Origin: Thermococcus aggregans
GTDB taxonomy: Archaea; Methanobacteriota_B; Thermococci; Thermococcales; Thermococcaceae
DNA length: 64,000 nucleotides
Direction: 5' to 3'
Assembly: GCF_024022995.1 (NCBI RefSeq)
Contig: NZ_CP099582.1
Span: forward strand, 620,001-684,000
Every line of letters starts with the position of its first letter. Positions within the stretch are counted from its first letter, which is position 1. The notes below the pieces were generated by a model. That model ran no database searches. It worked only from the letters and a program-made list of their open reading frames with translations, and was not told the origin of the DNA. The position numbers and the translations under genes were made by a program. This document shows, piece by piece, positions 27,218 to 32,908 of the stretch.

Positions 27218-28243
27218 TCAGTTGCTCTTCTTATGTCTGTATTCGTATGCTATGCCACCGTCGATTATGACATAAATGTCCTCTCCACCTTCTGTGTAAT
27301 GGAGAATTGGCTTGTCTAAAAGATCGAAAGTCTTCTTCAGATCATCTTTTGTAGCTAAGATAACTCTCTTCTCTACTTCAACAGGGGCTCCTTCTGTAAT
27401 GTAGGGAGCTAGATCCTTAAATTCATTCTTGGGTCTCTGAGCCCTGATTGTATAAACTCCTCCTATAAGGGGTGTTAAGAATAGCAATGCTAATATTGGA
27501 GCCACTTTCTTTGCAGTATCGGCGTAGAAGGGCAGCCCAGCAATCCTCACTATCGTCTTTTTTGTTCCTTTTTCTACCACCGTTTTCTGCGTGCTTTCCT
27601 TCTCATTGGTGAAGTAGTAAAGACCAGAGCTTGAATCTTTAACTAAAGACGAGCTGTGCTCAAAGCTTTCAGTTATCTCTCTCCCATAAACGTTTCCTTC
27701 AACATTAACCTTCGTAACAAACGTTATCTTTCGGTTCAACCTCTTTAAGCCAAGCTGCTCTATTATCTCATTAGTTCTGTTTGCAAGTTTGGTTAAATTG
27801 AGCTCATACTGTACGGTAAATTTACCATCCTTTAGCTCTCCCGATTTCTCGAAGAGCCTTTCCTCCCATAAGACAACCTCTTCACTACCCTTATTTACGG
27901 TATATTGAACTATCCCCTGAGTCACATAGCTTCCCTTTATTGAAGTCATGGGAGTAAAACGATAGCTGTACGTGATCACAAAGCTCTCTACAAGGGGAAT
28001 GGGGTATTCCTCCCTTCTTAGTGTTTCTCCATAAAGCGTGTTGTTCTTTAACAAAGCCATATGAATAAGCTCCCCCTCCTGAGTATATTCACCAACCGTC
28101 TGCTGGATCGTTACGACAGAGCTAACTCCCATTAACTTTATTGAATAAAATCCAAAAAACAAGAAGAGAACAAGCGACACTGCGAGAACTTCTCTTCTAG
28201 TTACCCATTTTTTCAGTTTTTCTTTATCAATACTTCCACTCAT
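27218..28243 (-). CDS. DUF5305-type membrane protein of the secreted-protein island
   Basis: A 341-residue protein with an N-terminal helix (about residues 19-36), a large extracytoplasmic beta-rich domain (ITYSYRFTPMTSIKGSYV and a YELNLTKLANRTNEII segment) and a second helix near 245-265 (VAPILALLFLTPLIGGVYTI). A cytoplasmic C-terminal domain of about 75 residues follows (EKRVILATKDDLKKTFDLLDKP). This layout fits the archaeal DUF5305 family. Such genes tend to sit beside SipW-type signal peptidases; here it is the last gene of that cluster, 26 bp after the DUF11-like protein gene. A role in assembling or anchoring the secreted products is an inference. Confidence 0.65.
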   Translation of the reverse strand: MSGSIDKEKLKKWVTRREVLAVSLVLFLFFGFYSIKLMGVSSVVTIQQTVGEYTQEGELIHMALLKNNTLYGETLRREEYPIPLVESFVITYSYRFTPMTSIKGSYVTQGIVQYTVNKGSEEVVLWEERLFEKSGELKDGKFTVQYELNLTKLANRTNEIIEQLGLKRLNRKITFVTKVNVEGNVYGREITESFEHSSSLVKDSSSGLYYFTNEKESTQKTVVEKGTKKTIVRIAGLPFYADTAKKVAPILALLFLTPLIGGVYTIRAQRPKNEFKDLAPYITEGAPVEVEKRVILATKDDLKKTFDLLDKPILHYTEGGEDIYVIIDGGIAYEYRHKKSN

Positions 28244-28269
28244 CTAAATTTCCTCCATACGCATAATAT

Positions 28270-29274
28270 TTAACCTCTTCTACCAGAGCGTTCTCCGCCC
28301 TCAGTCCGATTGCCGCTGACTTCTGTAGTGTTACCGCTTCCAGTAGATCTATCCTTATCTTCGCAATCAACATTTGCCTCTACCGTAATATTGTTGCTAA
28401 CTATCCCATAACCAACTATCTCTGCACCCTCATTAAGGTAGTATGAACCGCAGGAGGTAAATTCCCATTTTCTACATCTTCCACAAGGTCCAGTTTTCAC
28501 ACATCTTGTGGAGATGGTTATATTCATGTGGGCACTTTCTCCTGGGCCTAATTCAACATTCCATTCTAAATGATCCGACTTTCCGTGCCTAGTAAAGGTA
28601 TAATTCCCTTTGCTTGCGCTTGTTCTGCTTAGATCTACATCGAATTCTCCCGGGATCACGTCTTTTATGGTTAGGTTTCTCGGTGTTCCCGAATTGTTAA
28701 CTTCTATCTGGAACACCCATTCTTGGTAGGTTTTCAATGGAATGTTAGTTGTATTCCCGCTTAAGAGAACCTTTCTAATCTTCGGCCCGCTTAGGATTAC
28801 CACTTTTATTGAACAGGTTTCTATTACTGCATCCCCTCCATCCCAAGTAGCATAGAGAGTTATAGGAACTTCATAAGTCCCCGGATCCGCATTCCCAACG
28901 CTGATGTTGCCCCAGAAGGTATAGTATTCCTGGGAATCAATCGGCCTTGTTATACCATCTTCACTCTCTATCCACATTTCGACACCACTTGGAAGGTTAG
29001 AGTAATCCGGATCAAGCCAGATATTGACGGTTTTAAGTTCATTTAAGTAGTTGCCAATTGTTAATGCATCAAAAGTAAGTTCGCTGTTCTGGTCAACTAT
29101 TACCGTAGCTGCGTATCCATCGTAGCACATGAAGCTTATGTATTCTCTGTCATGAGGAACAACTGCAACTTTTACCTCTCTTTCCGCATTAAAGTAGATG
29201 AAAGTCCCGCTTGAACCGATGACTATCAGTGATGAGAGAAGCATCAAAAGTATAACTGGAATAAGTTTTCTCAT
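28270..29274 (-). CDS. Secreted DUF1102-like protein with a DUF11-type domain
   Basis: The 334-residue product starts with a hydrophobic signal, MRKLIPVILLMLLSSLIVIG, followed by GTFIYFNAEREVKVAVVPHD, the same pattern (TFxxYxAxRxVxxxIV) that opens the three shorter secreted proteins of this cluster. A middle beta domain and a DUF11-like domain follow (VNNSGTPRNLTIKDVIPGEF, then GPGESAHMNITISTRC), with clustered cysteines (CVKTGPCGRC) and a Gly/Arg/Ser-rich hydrophilic tail without an anchor. It may be a minor tip or base component of an extracellular fibre. ATGA overlap with the gene upstream (29271-29274). Confidence 0.65.
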   Translation of the reverse strand: MRKLIPVILLMLLSSLIVIGSSGTFIYFNAEREVKVAVVPHDREYISFMCYDGYAATVIVDQNSELTFDALTIGNYLNELKTVNIWLDPDYSNLPSGVEMWIESEDGITRPIDSQEYYTFWGNISVGNADPGTYEVPITLYATWDGGDAVIETCSIKVVILSGPKIRKVLLSGNTTNIPLKTYQEWVFQIEVNNSGTPRNLTIKDVIPGEFDVDLSRTSASKGNYTFTRHGKSDHLEWNVELGPGESAHMNITISTRCVKTGPCGRCRKWEFTSCGSYYLNEGAEIVGYGIVSNNITVEANVDCEDKDRSTGSGNTTEVSGNRTEGGERSGRRG

Positions 29275-29957
29275 CTTCCAAACACCTCCATTTTGATTTG
29301 CCTCAATAAGCTGGATCTTTTATTTCTGATTTTCAATACGTCCTCATTCCCAATGCCCGAGATGAAGTATAGAACTCCAAGAAATACCGAAGTCTCAAAA
29401 AGGATTGCAAAAACAGGCAACACAGGATTTACTCTGTATAAGGAACCTATAATCGATTCAGGAAGAAGTGGAATGTAGGCGTTTACCCTAACCTTATCTG
29501 TGAACAGGGAAGTTTCCTCGGGAGCGCTTATTGTAACTTTAGCCGTCTCTTCCTCTTGAGGTCCCAATTCGAGCTGGGTCTTTGATATGCCTGAAATCCC
29601 CCCGGTTTGGGGCTCAAGGTAGTAAATCATAGGATAGAAGTTCCCGTTTTTTATTGTTATCTCCCTTTCAAACGTAGAACCCGGCAAAACCCATCCTTCT
29701 CTCTGCCCTCCGGCTGAAGTTACTGCATATTCTATTGGAAACATCTGCCACGAAGCGAATATCGAAACCGAGAGCATTATTAAGAGAAAGGCTGATGTCA
29801 AGATGTAAAGCGTTTTGAACTTGATCTTGATGAACTTTGGCCTTTTTCTTTTGTGCTTCGGCTCTCCAGTAAACGCGAGGGCACCAATAATTATCATGGC
29901 AGCCGCAAGGAACATTTTATTCCTCCCTGAGATCCCCCTCTGGATGTAAGTGCCCAA
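29271..29957 (-). CDS. Probable detached C-terminal half of the SipW-like signal peptidase
   Basis: A 228-residue frame with hydrophobic segments MFLAAAMIIIGALAF, LYILTSAFLLIMLSVSIFAS and VFAILFETSVFLGVLYFIS and an external beta domain of about 110 residues (EREITIKNGNFYPMIYYLEP). Its first residues, GTYIQRGISGRNKM, do not look like a natural start. They continue exactly, in another frame, from the signal peptidase at GNSPLK(V)PQL, so one extra C in the G5/C5 run at 29972-29976 would fuse both into a protein of about 355 residues. If separate, ATG 29915 is the likelier start. The neighbour order supports a role in secretion of the DUF1102 proteins. Confidence 0.6.
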   Translation of the reverse strand: MGTYIQRGISGRNKMFLAAAMIIIGALAFTGEPKHKRKRPKFIKIKFKTLYILTSAFLLIMLSVSIFASWQMFPIEYAVTSAGGQREGWVLPGSTFEREITIKNGNFYPMIYYLEPQTGGISGISKTQLELGPQEEETAKVTISAPEETSLFTDKVRVNAYIPLLPESIIGSLYRVNPVLPVFAILFETSVFLGVLYFISGIGNEDVLKIRNKRSSLLRQIKMEVFGR

Positions 29958-30337
29958 TTGTGGGACTTTAAGGGGGAATTGCCAATAGTAATAAGCTTTC
30001 CCGCTATTTTATCTTTTGAAACTGGACTTGCCCTACCTTCTTGCTGATCGGTTGCAACGTTGTTATCGCCTTTGGTGATATATCCATCCTCAACAATCGC
30101 CACAACTCTATGAACAGTCCAGCTGCCTCTTAAGTTAAAAACTATTATATCCCCAACGTCCGCACTCCTTGAGAAAGGATTTATAAAGAACAAATCTCCC
30201 TTATTCAACGCAGGGGTCATACTCTCTGAAGAAACATAAGACATGAAGACGGGTCTATCAAGAAGAGCCCCGACGATAGACCCCACAACAAAAGCGGTAA
30301 CCGCCAGAATTAGGAAATATTCAATGAGCTTCTTCAT
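29894..30337 (-). CDS. Signal peptidase I, archaeal/ER (SipW-like) type; C-terminus apparently frameshifted
   Basis: An S26B-type peptidase: N-terminal helix (about residues 5-25), catalytic Ser39 in VSSESMTP, then VGDIIVF, the His76 that replaces the bacterial lysine (TVHRVVA) and YITKGDNN with the conserved aspartate. It cleaves signal peptides at the outer membrane face. Here it sits among secreted proteins that share one signal-peptide style, as Bacillus SipW sits with TapA and TasA. After GKLITIGNSPLK the reading frame ends in an unfamiliar tail (SHNWALTSRGGSQGG), whereas the next frame gives the expected continuation. Overlap with the following frame is 64 bp. The start overlaps the upstream stop by 4 bp (ATGA). 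Confidence 0.85.
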   Translation of the reverse strand: MKKLIEYFLILAVTAFVVGSIVGALLDRPVFMSYVSSESMTPALNKGDLFFINPFSRSADVGDIIVFNLRGSWTVHRVVAIVEDGYITKGDNNVATDQQEGRASPVSKDKIAGKLITIGNSPLKSHNWALTSRGGSQGGIKCSLRLP

Positions 30338-30840
30338 TCACATGAGCCTCCAAAGGCTTGTATCGTGATGTGTTGATTATAATCTCCCAAGGGCAATCCT
30401 GCAGTGTCGAACCGCATTCCTACCTTTACACTTTGATTTGCTGGGACTTCAAACTCTATGCTCTGGCTCCAGGTGCCGGTATAGGGACTCACAAAAAGTC
30501 CAATAGCTGGAGTTGGAGAAGTTACACTCACGCATATCACACTTTCCCCCGTTTCAGTTTCGTTGTTGTATATCTCAAAAACATCATTAAAAACATAGAC
30601 AGTATCGGGCGAAAGACCCTCTCCAAAACCCGGATAAAGGGGACTTTGGTTACTGATATCGATCTTTAGATAACCGTTGCTTAGAAAAGCATAAGGTGGA
30701 AGAGGGTTTTCTATAGAAACTGAGGTGTTATCATCAACAGCAAGAACAACGGGAATCGGCTTCACAACAAAAACTCCCCACATAAAAAACATCATAACTA
30801 ATATGATCGGCAGAACAGCAAATTTAATAACTTTTCTCAC
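30334..30840 (-). CDS. Secreted DUF1102 family protein (candidate fibre subunit)
   Basis: A 168-residue protein with a signal-anchor (about residues 7-25), then VVLAVDDNTSVSIENPLPP and PYAFLSNGYLKIDIS, and GFGEGLSPDTVYVFNDVFEI. The same blocks appear in order in the proteins at 30907 and 31452, so the three are paralogues. It has one late cysteine pair (VICVSV and FGGSCE). DUF1102 proteins resemble TasA/AbpA, jelly-roll subunits that polymerise by donor-strand exchange; the link is from family knowledge. Overlap with the signal peptidase gene implies coupled expression. Confidence 0.7.
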   Translation of the reverse strand: MRKVIKFAVLPIILVMMFFMWGVFVVKPIPVVLAVDDNTSVSIENPLPPYAFLSNGYLKIDISNQSPLYPGFGEGLSPDTVYVFNDVFEIYNNETETGESVICVSVTSPTPAIGLFVSPYTGTWSQSIEFEVPANQSVKVGMRFDTAGLPLGDYNQHITIQAFGGSCE

Positions 30841-30906
30841 TTTTTTCTCCCCCTAAAATGTTAGATAAAAGGAGCAAAGGCTCCAAGATGGAAAGGTTAA
30901 ATTAGA

Positions 30907-31455
30907 TCAATCGCATGTACCCTTCCATGCATGTATGCTCATCTGAACTTGTATATCACCGGGGTTGACACTTAGTCCCATATTTGAAGTATCAAATACC
31001 ATGCCTACGCTAACTGGGGTGTTGTGGTATACTGTGAACTGAAGCTGAGTACCTGAAGTTTCAGCCCAATCTCCCTCGAATATCTCAACGCCGCTTCCTT
31101 GAGTAATTGAGATCTGAACACAGATTGGAAAGTCGGTCTCATTGTTTTCCCAAAGCTCGTTGCTTACATTGAACATGTGCTCAAACACGTAGGTGGTGTT
31201 TGGGCTCAGACCTCTACCAAATCCCAAAGTTTCATTGTAGTTCGGGTTGTTTGTGCTGATCTCAATTGTGAGTTTGCCGTTGTTGAGATATGCATACGGC
31301 TGTGCTGGGGTTAAATCAATAAATTCATTCTCATCTGAAACTATTGCTACAGTTATACCTCTATCTGCCTCATAGTACCTAAAGGTAGCACCTGCCCCCA
31401 CTGCCAGCATCATGCCGATTAAGAGTATTGCCAATCCTATTAGTTTATTCATCAT
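30907..31455 (-). CDS. Secreted DUF1102 family protein (candidate fibre subunit)
   Basis: A 182-residue protein: signal peptide MMNKLIGLAILLIGMMLAVG ending near GATF, then RYYEADRGITVAIVSDENEF, QPYAYLNNGKLTIEIS, GFGRGLSPNTTYVFEHMF and a C-terminal IQVQMSIHAWKGTCD. Compared with its paralogues it is the most canonical. A SipW-like peptidase would be expected to cut before ATF. Start ATG 31455 overlaps the upstream stop (ATGA) and has GGGGGTGG before it; the open frame to 31473 is within the previous gene. It is followed by a 66-bp gap and then the third paralogue. Confidence 0.78.
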   Translation of the reverse strand: MMNKLIGLAILLIGMMLAVGAGATFRYYEADRGITVAIVSDENEFIDLTPAQPYAYLNNGKLTIEISTNNPNYNETLGFGRGLSPNTTYVFEHMFNVSNELWENNETDFPICVQISITQGSGVEIFEGDWAETSGTQLQFTVYHNTPVSVGMVFDTSNMGLSVNPGDIQVQMSIHAWKGTCD

Positions 31456-32093
31456 GATCCACCCCCATGGCATCCTGATGGTAATTCTTGGGGTTCGGTA
31501 CCCAACCTGTATGCCTTAATTGTCATCTTTGCGTTCCAAACGTCATTTGGGCTGTCACCATCTGCGCTAAGGTCTATGCCTATCTTCTTAGCTTCTCCTC
31601 TGTTCAAAATGAAGCATACATCATCTCTTGCGCTGTCTGAGGCTGTCGCCAGAGCTCCACCATCAACTGCATATACTCCTCCTTCATGCCCGTAGAACTC
31701 TATGTTCGAGAGGTTTGACGTTATCCTTACTACTATGGTGGTGTCTTCCCACAGATCATTGCTCACTTCAAAGACTTCATCGAAGTTGTACTCGCTTGAT
31801 GGGCTGATTCCGTCTCCGTATCCGGGATATTTTGGATTGTTTGCTGAGAAGTCAATCACCAAAACTCCGCCATTGTTTATATATGCATATGGCTGAAGTG
31901 GGTTTAGGTCAATAAGTTCCGTATCGTCTGTTACAATCGTCCAGTGAACGCTTCTGCTTGCATTGTAGTCCCTGAACGTTGCGCTGGTGGCTAAGGCGGC
32001 TGCAAAGGCCACTAACAGGCCTAACATTCCAAGTGCTAAAACTTTTTTCAAATCTTTCGCCTCCAATTTTTTCGAAGGGTGCCCCATTGACAT
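31452..32093 (-). CDS. Secreted DUF1102 family protein, first gene of the island (candidate major fibre subunit)
   Basis: Up to 213 residues: a basic N-terminus, hydrophobic core VLALGMLGLLVAFAAALA, cleavage region TSATF, then RDYNASRSVHWTIVTDDTEL, LQPYAYINNGGVLVIDFS, GYGDGISPSSEYNFDEVFEV and an insert rich in Ala/Asp before MTIKAYRLG and a Gly/Ser tail. The start is uncertain. ATG 32093 lies about 12 nt after the predicted transcription start; a TTG at 32051 with GGAGG upstream would begin LKKVLALG and give a more usual signal peptide. Its promoter is the strongest-looking in the cluster, consistent with a major subunit. Confidence 0.75.
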   Translation of the reverse strand: MSMGHPSKKLEAKDLKKVLALGMLGLLVAFAAALATSATFRDYNASRSVHWTIVTDDTELIDLNPLQPYAYINNGGVLVIDFSANNPKYPGYGDGISPSSEYNFDEVFEVSNDLWEDTTIVVRITSNLSNIEFYGHEGGVYAVDGGALATASDSARDDVCFILNRGEAKKIGIDLSADGDSPNDVWNAKMTIKAYRLGTEPQELPSGCHGGGS

Positions 32094-32123
32094 GAGGCAC
32101 TCATTACTCTCTTACTCCCTTTG

Positions 32124-32134
32124 AGTATATAGTT
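32124..32134 (-). promoter_or_regulatory. TATA box of the DUF1102/signal peptidase operon
   Basis: ACTATATACTC on the minus strand, preceded by a purine-rich BRE-like stretch, lies about 30-40 bp before ATG 32093. It separates the two regulator genes from the secreted-protein genes, so the latter have their own promoter. Confidence 0.55.
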
Positions 32135-32189
32135 AATTCCGGCTTACCTTCGGGTAGTCTGTCATTACTTTATAAACTTCTACATTTTA

Positions 32190-32687
32190 TTAGTCGCCAG
32201 ATCTCTTGATAACTTTGTAAGTCTTGAAATGCTGAATAATTGACAAAGTGAAATATATTCCTGAAATTATCACGAGGGGCACGTTGTTGAGCCAGAGGCC
32301 CAAAAGGGCAAAGAGAACCGAAATTCCTGAATAAAAGGTACTCCAGCTTATGTCATGCTTTGAAACTACTTCCATGTAAACATCTACATCCTCCGGAACC
32401 CTAAGCAAAGTTACCCAGTTGTGATCAAATTTTATTATCCCTGCTCTCTCCATTTTTGGAAGGTGAGTTTGGAGCAGACTTACATAAACGCTCTTTCTGT
32501 GCTTTCTATTGTTTTGTCCCTCGTTTTCAGCTATAAAGTCCACAATCTCTCTTAACTCAGCCTTACCGTTGTTATTTTGGAGAAACTCCAGAAGAAGCAT
32601 TCTTCTATCGTTCCCCAAGATCATTGAGGAGGGGCTCATTGTATTATTCTCTCCCTTCACTCCGATCCCTCCTGGAATGGTGTTCAT
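32190..32687 (-). CDS. Winged-helix protein with two C-terminal membrane helices (DUF7344-like)
   Basis: A 165-residue protein. Residues about 25-95 form a winged-helix domain (RRMLLLEFLQNN, ELREIVDFIAENE, KSVYVSLLQTHLPKMERAGI, then a wing with VTLL). Two hydrophobic helices follow (about 115-150). It would be a DNA-binding protein held at the membrane, well suited to sense secretion or surface state. The start ATG 32687 overlaps the stop of the preceding winged-helix gene (TAATG). The operon of secreted proteins begins 97 bp downstream, making it the natural candidate regulator. Confidence 0.7.
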   Translation of the reverse strand: MNTIPGGIGVKGENNTMSPSSMILGNDRRMLLLEFLQNNNGKAELREIVDFIAENEGQNNRKHRKSVYVSLLQTHLPKMERAGIIKFDHNWVTLLRVPEDVDVYMEVVSKHDISWSTFYSGISVLFALLGLWLNNVPLVIISGIYFTLSIIQHFKTYKVIKRSGD

Positions 32688-32908
32688 TACCCCACCAGCC
32701 GGTAGTGTCTTCTATGGTTTCCGTTTCTATAGAAAAACTCAACTTTTCCAGCCTGTGAAAGCCTTCTTAGGGTCCTTTCAACCTTCTGTCTTGTACATTC
32801 AACACCTCTCTCATTGAGAAAGCGGGTTAGGAATGAAACCGTGAGCTCTCCTTTTTCCTTAAGAAGCTGAAGAATCTCTTCTTCAATGCCAACGTGTATT
32901 TTTTCCAT
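32687..32908 (-). CDS. Small winged-helix DNA-binding protein
   Basis: A 73-residue protein that is almost only a winged helix: EEEILQLLKEKGELTVSFLT, a recognition helix around QKVERTLRRLSQAGKV and a basic wing YRNGNHRRHYRLVG. It resembles archaeal MarR/LexA-like minimal repressors but no precise family is claimed. It is co-translated with the membrane winged-helix gene and probably helps regulate the DUF1102 cluster downstream. Confidence 0.7.
   Translation of the reverse strand: MEKIHVGIEEEILQLLKEKGELTVSFLTRFLNERGVECTRQKVERTLRRLSQAGKVEFFYRNGNHRRHYRLVG

What the first reader, a model, noticed from the sequence alone, without database searches (positions are those of the whole stretch)
27218..32908. 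Island of DUF1102 secreted proteins with a dedicated SipW-like signal peptidase: a candidate archaeal TasA/AbpA-type extracellular fibre system
Three paralogous secreted proteins (30334, 30907, 31452) share ordered blocks: the TFRxYxAxR start (clear in the last two), PYAxLNNGxLxIxIS, and GxGxGxSPxTxYxFxxxF. A fourth, longer one (28270) shares the start. They are interleaved with an S26B signal peptidase, a DUF5305-like two-helix protein and two winged-helix proteins, one carrying membrane helices. Bacillus SipW with TapA/TasA and archaeal AbpA bundling pili are known donor-strand fibres with similar jelly-roll subunits. Here subunits, processing enzyme, possible anchors and a membrane-held regulator appear together, suggesting a self-contained, regulated fibre or matrix system.
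Basis: partly seen in the sequence, partly recalled or inferred. Interest (0 to 1): 0.75.

Follow-up and report, generated by a model that had tools for sequence, protein, structure and literature searches.

The report
Second archaeal TasA-like surface-fibre operon
A heat-loving archaeon carries a conserved operon of secreted DUF1102 proteins with its own signal peptidase; their predicted folds most resemble archaeal bundling pili and bacterial strand-exchange pili, so it probably builds an extracellular fibre by a route parallel to, but distinct in sequence from, the known TasA/AbpA system.

Summary
Three DUF1102 (PF06510) genes, an S26B signal peptidase, a longer protein, a DUF5305 protein and two winged-helix proteins form one operon, in near-constant order in about 60 Thermococcaceae loci and in Archaeoglobales, and in diverged form in haloarchaea. 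The peptidase (29894) and gene 29271 are halves of one gene, intact in 63/63 other loci, broken here by a C6-to-C5 deletion. D1 starts at TTG 32051. The long protein's N-terminal domain is DUF1102-related.

AlphaFold models of D2 and D1 have disordered N termini. Their best PDB matches are donor-strand pilins: AbpA (rank 1 for D1, rank 2 for D2), FimA, Sulfolobus thread (D2) and a "Hyper2 tube" (D1). TM-scores are only about 0.4. Sequence profiles do not join DUF1102 to TasA.

The same genome has a true TasA-family operon with its own peptidase extension and DUF5305; DUF5305 in Thermococcaceae occurs almost only beside DUF1102 or TasA genes. I favour a second donor-strand fibre system (0.7); polymerisation is untested.

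New: D1-D2 were swapped in from another operon class as a cassette, and the D1 leader is structured with a covarying hairpin.

The parts
32687..32908 (-). Small winged-helix protein, first gene of the operon
   Evidence: Weak wHTH hits; orthologue in the same place in most loci
32190..32687 (-). DUF7344 winged-helix protein with membrane segment(s)
   Evidence: PF24035 E=7.6e-19; hydrophobic segment 122-140
32126..32157 (-). Imperfect palindrome TACC-N4-GGTA followed by BRE/TATA (GGAATTAACTATATA) upstream of D1
   Evidence: Conserved element in other genera, perfect in several (GTTACC-N4-GGTAAC)
32052..32100 (-). Structured leader: hairpin 32100-32079 and Shine-Dalgarno GGAGG 32064-32060, predicted partly sequestered
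   Evidence: MFE z=-3.2; 9/9 pairs kept in 9 sequences, 3 pairs with double changes; no Rfam match
31452..32051 (-). D1, DUF1102 secreted protein, candidate major fibre subunit; N-terminal SATFRDYNASR
   Evidence: PF06510 E=3.8e-54; start codon by RBS and orthologues; fold nearest AbpA
30907..31473 (-). D2, DUF1102 secreted protein, candidate major fibre subunit; N-terminal ATFRYYEADR
   Evidence: PF06510 E=2.6e-47; AlphaFold pLDDT 80.7; fold nearest FimA/AbpA/thread
30334..30840 (-). D3, DUF1102 protein without the N-terminal motif; candidate cap or anchor (optional, absent in Pyrococcus-type loci)
   Evidence: PF06510 E=8.6e-32; alignment; distribution
29271..30337 (-). One gene split in two ORFs (29894-30337 and 29271-29957): S26B signal peptidase, then two TM segments, an extracellular domain and a last TM; frameshift at C run 29972-29976
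   Evidence: Single ORF in 63/63 other loci; DNA alignment C6 vs C5; Ser and His motifs in 63/63
28270..29274 (-). LONG: DUF1102-related N-terminal domain plus a second beta domain; candidate minor or nucleating subunit
   Evidence: hhalign to DUF1102 probability 92-95 over 101-103 columns; alignment
27218..28243 (-). DUF5305 membrane protein, candidate assembly platform
   Evidence: PF17231 E=1.5e-12; two TM segments; family found beside DUF1102 or TasA genes

Best explanation
The operon makes an extracellular fibre assembled by donor-strand exchange. D1 and D2 (and LONG) are exported by Sec, trimmed by the operon's own S26B peptidase, and released with a free N-terminal strand (ATFRxYxAxR) that completes the beta sandwich of the next subunit. 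LONG, with the same N-terminal segment and an extra domain, would start or cap the fibre; D3, without it, would be an acceptor-only cap or anchor; the membrane extension of the peptidase and DUF5305 would form the assembly site. A winged-helix pair and a structured D1 leader would control subunit output. Shown: genes, synteny, families, predicted folds, accessory module shared with a TasA-family operon, leader hairpin. Inferred: cleavage, polymerisation, roles of LONG, D3 and DUF5305, and regulation.
For: Top Foldseek hits among 350,542 PDB chains: D1: AbpA 7ueg E=4.6e-5 prob 1.00, then FimA, then a 'Hyper2 tube' 9bab; D2: FimA 5lp9 E=2.1e-4, AbpA 7ueg E=7.7e-4 prob 0.99, Sulfolobus thread 7pnb E=9.7e-3. 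Disordered N termini, residues 1-7 and 1-15. Peptidase linked in the loci and additional to the housekeeping one (three in genome). The genome's TasA-family operon has the same module: TasA-like protein, peptidase with TM extension, DUF5305; other Thermococcus genomes show wHTH, two TasA-family proteins, two small genes (one with a TasA-type N terminus), peptidase, DUF5305. DUF5305 is almost confined to these two contexts. LONG shares the subunit N-domain. TasA/SipW/TapA precedent: PMC9674648.
Against: TM-scores only 0.27-0.45 and rmsd 6.6-10 A for the pilin hits; D1 model pLDDT 68.8; the alignment behind both models has only 11 sequences; no TasA among the 50 listed hits. No sequence match to TasA/AbpA in PDB; hhalign to TasA-family profiles probability 8. 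No multimer model, microscopy, proteomics or expression data. The peptidase gene is frameshifted in this very genome.
Confidence: 0.7

Rival explanations
1. DUF1102 proteins are secreted or envelope-bound beta-sandwich proteins (sheath, S-layer-associated coat or adhesins) that need a dedicated peptidase but do not polymerise by strand exchange.
For: Fold resemblance is moderate (TM ~0.4); DUF1102 also occurs fused to VWA/NEW3 or Laminin_G/CARDB regions in large proteins of Archaeoglobales and haloarchaea, which suits adhesins.
Against: The listed top PDB hits are nearly all strand-exchange pilins; the N-terminal segment is conserved yet outside the predicted fold; paired subunits plus an N-domain-sharing minor protein mirror TasA-family operons.
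Confidence: 0.2
2. The genes are a secreted anti-microbial or pore-forming system.
For: One weak profile hit to Cyt1Aa (E=0.012).
Against: The hit is one short segment with no support in the fold searches; no immunity-like gene identified; near-universal conservation in the family (87/94).
Confidence: 0.04
3. The operon is a domesticated virus or mobile element structural module.
For: Operon beside tRNA-Gln in several genera; class exchange between lineages.
Against: No integrase or replication gene identified in the operon; no relative found in one scan of viral contigs; constant gene order and vertically inherited accessory genes within the genus.
Confidence: 0.05

Closest known systems
Archaeal bundling pili, AbpA of Pyrobaculum calidifontis (PDB 7ueg)
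   Same: Best structural match of D1 and second of D2; archaeal donor-strand fibre structurally related to TasA (literature, PMC9674648).
   Different: Not detectable by sequence; TM ~0.4; DUF1102 is a separate Pfam family. The AbpA paper itself is not held, so whether it lists DUF1102 is unknown to me.
Bacillus TapA-SipW-TasA / B. cereus SipW-TasA-CalY
   Same: Operon logic: fibre subunits, dedicated SipW-type peptidase, minor partner with similar N terminus (PMC9674648, PMC10151520, PMC13082335).
   Different: Subunits are DUF1102, not camelysins; the peptidase carries extra TM segments and a further domain; DUF5305 and the winged-helix genes have no Bacillus counterpart that I know of.
Thermococcales TasA-family (PF12389) operon, e.g. 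G000:C1 453890-456654 (L143)
   Same: Peptidase with TM extension and DUF5305 next to the subunit gene.
   Different: Subunits not shown to be related by sequence to DUF1102; no DUF7344 gene seen beside them.
Sulfolobus thread Saci_0406 (7pnb), FimA type 1 pilin
   Same: Fold-level hits; donor-strand filaments.
   Different: No sequence link; threads have no dedicated peptidase that I know of; FimA uses chaperone-usher, absent here.

Membership tests
DUF1102 (PF06510) | Score above Pfam gathering cut-off 22.2 | tested here: met
   110.7, 161.0 and 183.2 bits for the three genes
TasA/camelysin (PF12389) | Score above Pfam cut-off 22.5 | tested here: not met
   No PF12389 hit for D1-D3; own-genome hits lie elsewhere
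TasA/camelysin (PF12389) | Profile-profile homology | tested here: inconclusive
   hhalign E 0.004, probability 8; decoys E about 0.05-0.2
AbpA/TasA-type donor-strand fibre system | Beta-sandwich pilin-like subunit fold | tested here: met
   AlphaFold plus Foldseek, AbpA prob 0.99-1.00, but TM ~0.4
AbpA/TasA-type donor-strand fibre system | Free N-terminal segment able to act as donor strand | tested here: inconclusive
   Mature residues 1-7 / 1-15 disordered, motif in 121 of 160 DUF1102 ORFs; strand exchange itself not modelled
AbpA/TasA-type donor-strand fibre system | Dedicated S26B signal peptidase in the operon | tested here: met
   63/63 loci, SxSMxP and [TV]HR motifs in all; one of three peptidases in the genome
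AbpA/TasA-type donor-strand fibre system | Subunits polymerise into filaments | not testable with these tools
   Needs microscopy or biochemistry
Type IV pilus / archaellum | Secretion ATPase and TadC/FlaJ membrane protein in the locus | tested here: not met
   None among operon genes
Bacillus SipW equivalog (NF046067) | Score above curated cut-off 190 | tested here: not met
   30.7 bits; it is an archaeal S26B relative, not SipW itself

The most novel reading that the evidence does not exclude
DUF1102 is a second family of donor-strand fibre subunits, not linked to TasA by sequence, in Thermococcales, Archaeoglobales and haloarchaea that plugs into the same peptidase-DUF5305 assembly module as archaeal TasA-family proteins. 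The D1-D2 pair behaves as an exchangeable cassette replaced between lineages while the machinery is inherited vertically, and its output is set by a new structured mRNA leader that hides the ribosome-binding site.
Probability: 0.35. Interest if true: 0.78.

Novelty: new variant of a known kind. Interest (0 to 1): 0.62.

Why it matters
DUF1102 and DUF5305 have no assigned function, and neither name occurs in the open-access library searched. If right, they become parts of a fibre or matrix system present in most Thermococcales and in Archaeoglobales and haloarchaea, with a genetic host available (T. kodakarensis). A shared peptidase-DUF5305 module would link two fibre families that sequence alone does not join, and would give archaeal biofilm research a defined operon to delete and image. 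The natural cassette swap points to selection on surface-exposed subunits.

Tried and rejected
PDB search with one sequence gave only a bacterial lectin at E=0.06; with the family profile only Cyt1Aa at E=0.012: both treated as chance. The PF12389 scan of the own genome was meant to re-find DUF1102 as TasA; it found two other loci instead, which changed the argument from membership to shared module. The NCBIfam TafA hit (E=0.016, no stretch passing) was dropped. The viral-contig scan gave nothing. The reading of 29271 as an independent anchor protein was dropped once fused orthologues were seen. RNAalifold on the long leaders of other Thermococcus species returned only the SD-sequestering hairpin; a longer-range helix competing with it was tallied by script but not tested statistically, so no riboswitch is claimed. 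N-glycosylation sequons are only mildly enriched over shuffles (2.1 vs 1.5 in D1, 2.6 vs 1.6 in D2), so nothing is built on them. A sub-threshold Rfam hit (ctRNA_p42d) antisense to the peptidase gene was treated as chance.
Full report
OBSERVATION. The window lies in a 1.889-Mb Thermococcaceae chromosome. Pfam assigns DUF1102 to 31452 (D1), 30907 (D2) and 30334 (D3), DUF5305 to 27218, DUF7344 to 32190, and S24/S26 peptidase to 29894, with NCBI's archaeal signal peptidase I model above cut-off. The genome has three such peptidases: one at 1512529, which I take as the housekeeping enzyme (best score), one beside a TasA-family gene at 455454, and this one.

CORRECTIONS. In 63 of 63 other loci the peptidase and the downstream gene 29271 are a single ORF of about 326-401 codons. 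DNA alignment shows the window has CCCCC where its closest relative L035 (95-96% identical proteins) has CCCCCC, at 29972-29976. The catalytic part stays intact, but the extension (two TM segments, an extracellular domain, a third TM) is out of frame. Sequencing error, mutation and phase variation cannot be separated here. D1 starts at TTG 32051 behind GGAGG; many orthologues have ATG there. The 28270 protein (LONG) has a full DUF1102-related N-terminal domain (hhalign probability 92-95 over 101-103 columns; reversed decoys below 1) followed by a second domain.

CONSERVATION. DUF1102 is in 87 of 94 Thermococcaceae genomes and only marginally in one of the other Thermococci searched. The order DUF7344, D1, D2, (D3), peptidase fusion, LONG, DUF5305 recurs on one strand in essentially all full-length loci; in several Pyrococcus-type loci LONG was too diverged for detection or absent. 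In the phylum of a Geoglobus genome 58 of 393 genomes have DUF1102. The same operon is present in genomes whose lengths match, from memory, Archaeoglobus fulgidus, A. profundus and A. veneficus, and a diverged version in larger genomes that I take to be haloarchaea.

STRUCTURE. AlphaFold on mature D2 gave pLDDT 80.7, pTM 0.78, with residues 1-7 disordered; D1 gave 68.8 and 0.72, residues 1-15 disordered. Both are rich in beta strands. Foldseek against 350,542 PDB chains: for D2 ranks 1-7 are FimA (five entries), AbpA 7ueg and the Sulfolobus thread; for D1 rank 1 is AbpA (E=4.6e-5, probability 1.00), ranks 2-6 FimA, rank 7 a 'Hyper2 tube'. TM-scores are 0.27-0.45 and rmsd is high, so this is resemblance of topology, not close superposition. 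By sequence there is no significant link to AbpA or TasA; profile comparison with Thermococcales TasA-family proteins is marginal (E 0.004, probability 8, decoys near E 0.05-0.2), although the aligned stretch places the DUF1102 block 'GLSPxTxYxF..FxVSN' on the TasA-family block 'xMKPGxxxxxxFxLKN'.

PARALLEL OPERON. The same genome has two TasA-family (PF12389) genes. One heads an operon with an S26 peptidase that also carries a TM extension and with a DUF5305 gene. In other Thermococcus genomes the operon is wHTH, two TasA-family genes, two small genes (one with 'ASFSYFSDTET' behind its signal sequence), peptidase, DUF5305. Of the DUF5305 genes found in 94 genomes, almost all lie beside DUF1102; in nine genomes where both families were searched the extra copy lies beside a PF12389 gene; a few fragments or weak hits are unassigned (compared by coordinates). 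A peptidase-DUF5305 module serving two subunit families is the strongest non-structural argument that DUF1102 proteins are handled like TasA-type subunits.

EVOLUTION. D1 and peptidase-fusion trees both split the operons into two deep classes with the same membership, except for the window species: its accessory genes are about 68-93% identical to its genus, but D1 and D2 only 51-55% and 40-46%, while D1 is 69-77% identical to another genus and 77% to a Geoglobus genome. Joining the window's D1 with its genus is rejected (p-AU 3.5e-6), as is joining its peptidase fusion with the other class (2.8e-5); for D2 the comparable test against class B was not decisive (0.17), though its tree places it in class A. 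D1-D2 were therefore probably replaced as a cassette.

REGULATION. Upstream of D1 a palindrome (TTACC-N4-GGTAA in its best forms) precedes BRE/TATA. Between TATA and the start codon lies a hairpin kept in all nine distinct sequences aligned (eight of the genus, one of a neighbour genus), with double substitutions in 3 of 9 pairs (2 of 500 shuffles reach the covariation score); most leader folds are more stable than shuffles (z about -2 to -4; exceptions L078, L076 and L053). In other Thermococcus species the leader is about 110-170 nt and ends in GCCTCC...GGAGGC, hiding the Shine-Dalgarno, with an upstream strand able to compete. No Rfam family matches.

MECHANISM. Best reading: Sec export, cleavage by the operon's peptidase, and polymerisation by N-terminal donor strand, with LONG as starter or cap, D3 as acceptor-only end or anchor, and the peptidase extension plus DUF5305 as membrane assembly site. 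Only the parts list, synteny, predicted folds and RNA hairpin are shown; cleavage, polymerisation, roles and regulation are inferred. Literature anchors: SipW processes TasA and TapA, and TasA polymerises by N-terminal donor strand (PMC9674648); TasA homologues occur in archaea (PMC10151520); threads are donor-strand filaments (PMC9715654).

VERDICT. New variant of a known kind; interest 0.62.

Noticed in passing
window 29972-29976: One-base deletion in a C run splits the peptidase-fusion gene; intact in 63 other loci, including the closest relative.
   Followed up: yes
window 30907-32051: D1-D2 belong to a different operon class from the rest of the operon: subunit cassette swapped by recombination (strong for D1, tree placement only for D2).
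   Followed up: yes
window 32060-32100; D1 leaders of L061, L054, L060, L085: Conserved structured 5' leader with covarying hairpin; in other Thermococcus species a 110-170 nt leader with a hairpin hiding the Shine-Dalgarno and a competing upstream strand. No Rfam match; possible RNA switch or thermometer.
   Followed up: partly
L143 6355-9224; L142 8656-9252: Genuine TasA-family genes elsewhere in the same genome: one in a peptidase-DUF5305 operon, one without these partners.
   Followed up: yes
L123 7459-9057; L129 8511-9974: Large DUF1102 proteins with VWA and NEW3 regions, or Laminin_G and CARDB regions: possible tip adhesins.
   Followed up: no
L043, L045, L049, L054, L055, L060, L063, L065, L071, L093: In other genera the operon lies close to tRNA-Gln (CTG), for both operon classes; in the window's genus it has different, conserved flanks.
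   Followed up: partly
genomes G026 and G041: Nearly complete Thermococcaceae genomes without any DUF1102 match: the system is dispensable.
   Followed up: no
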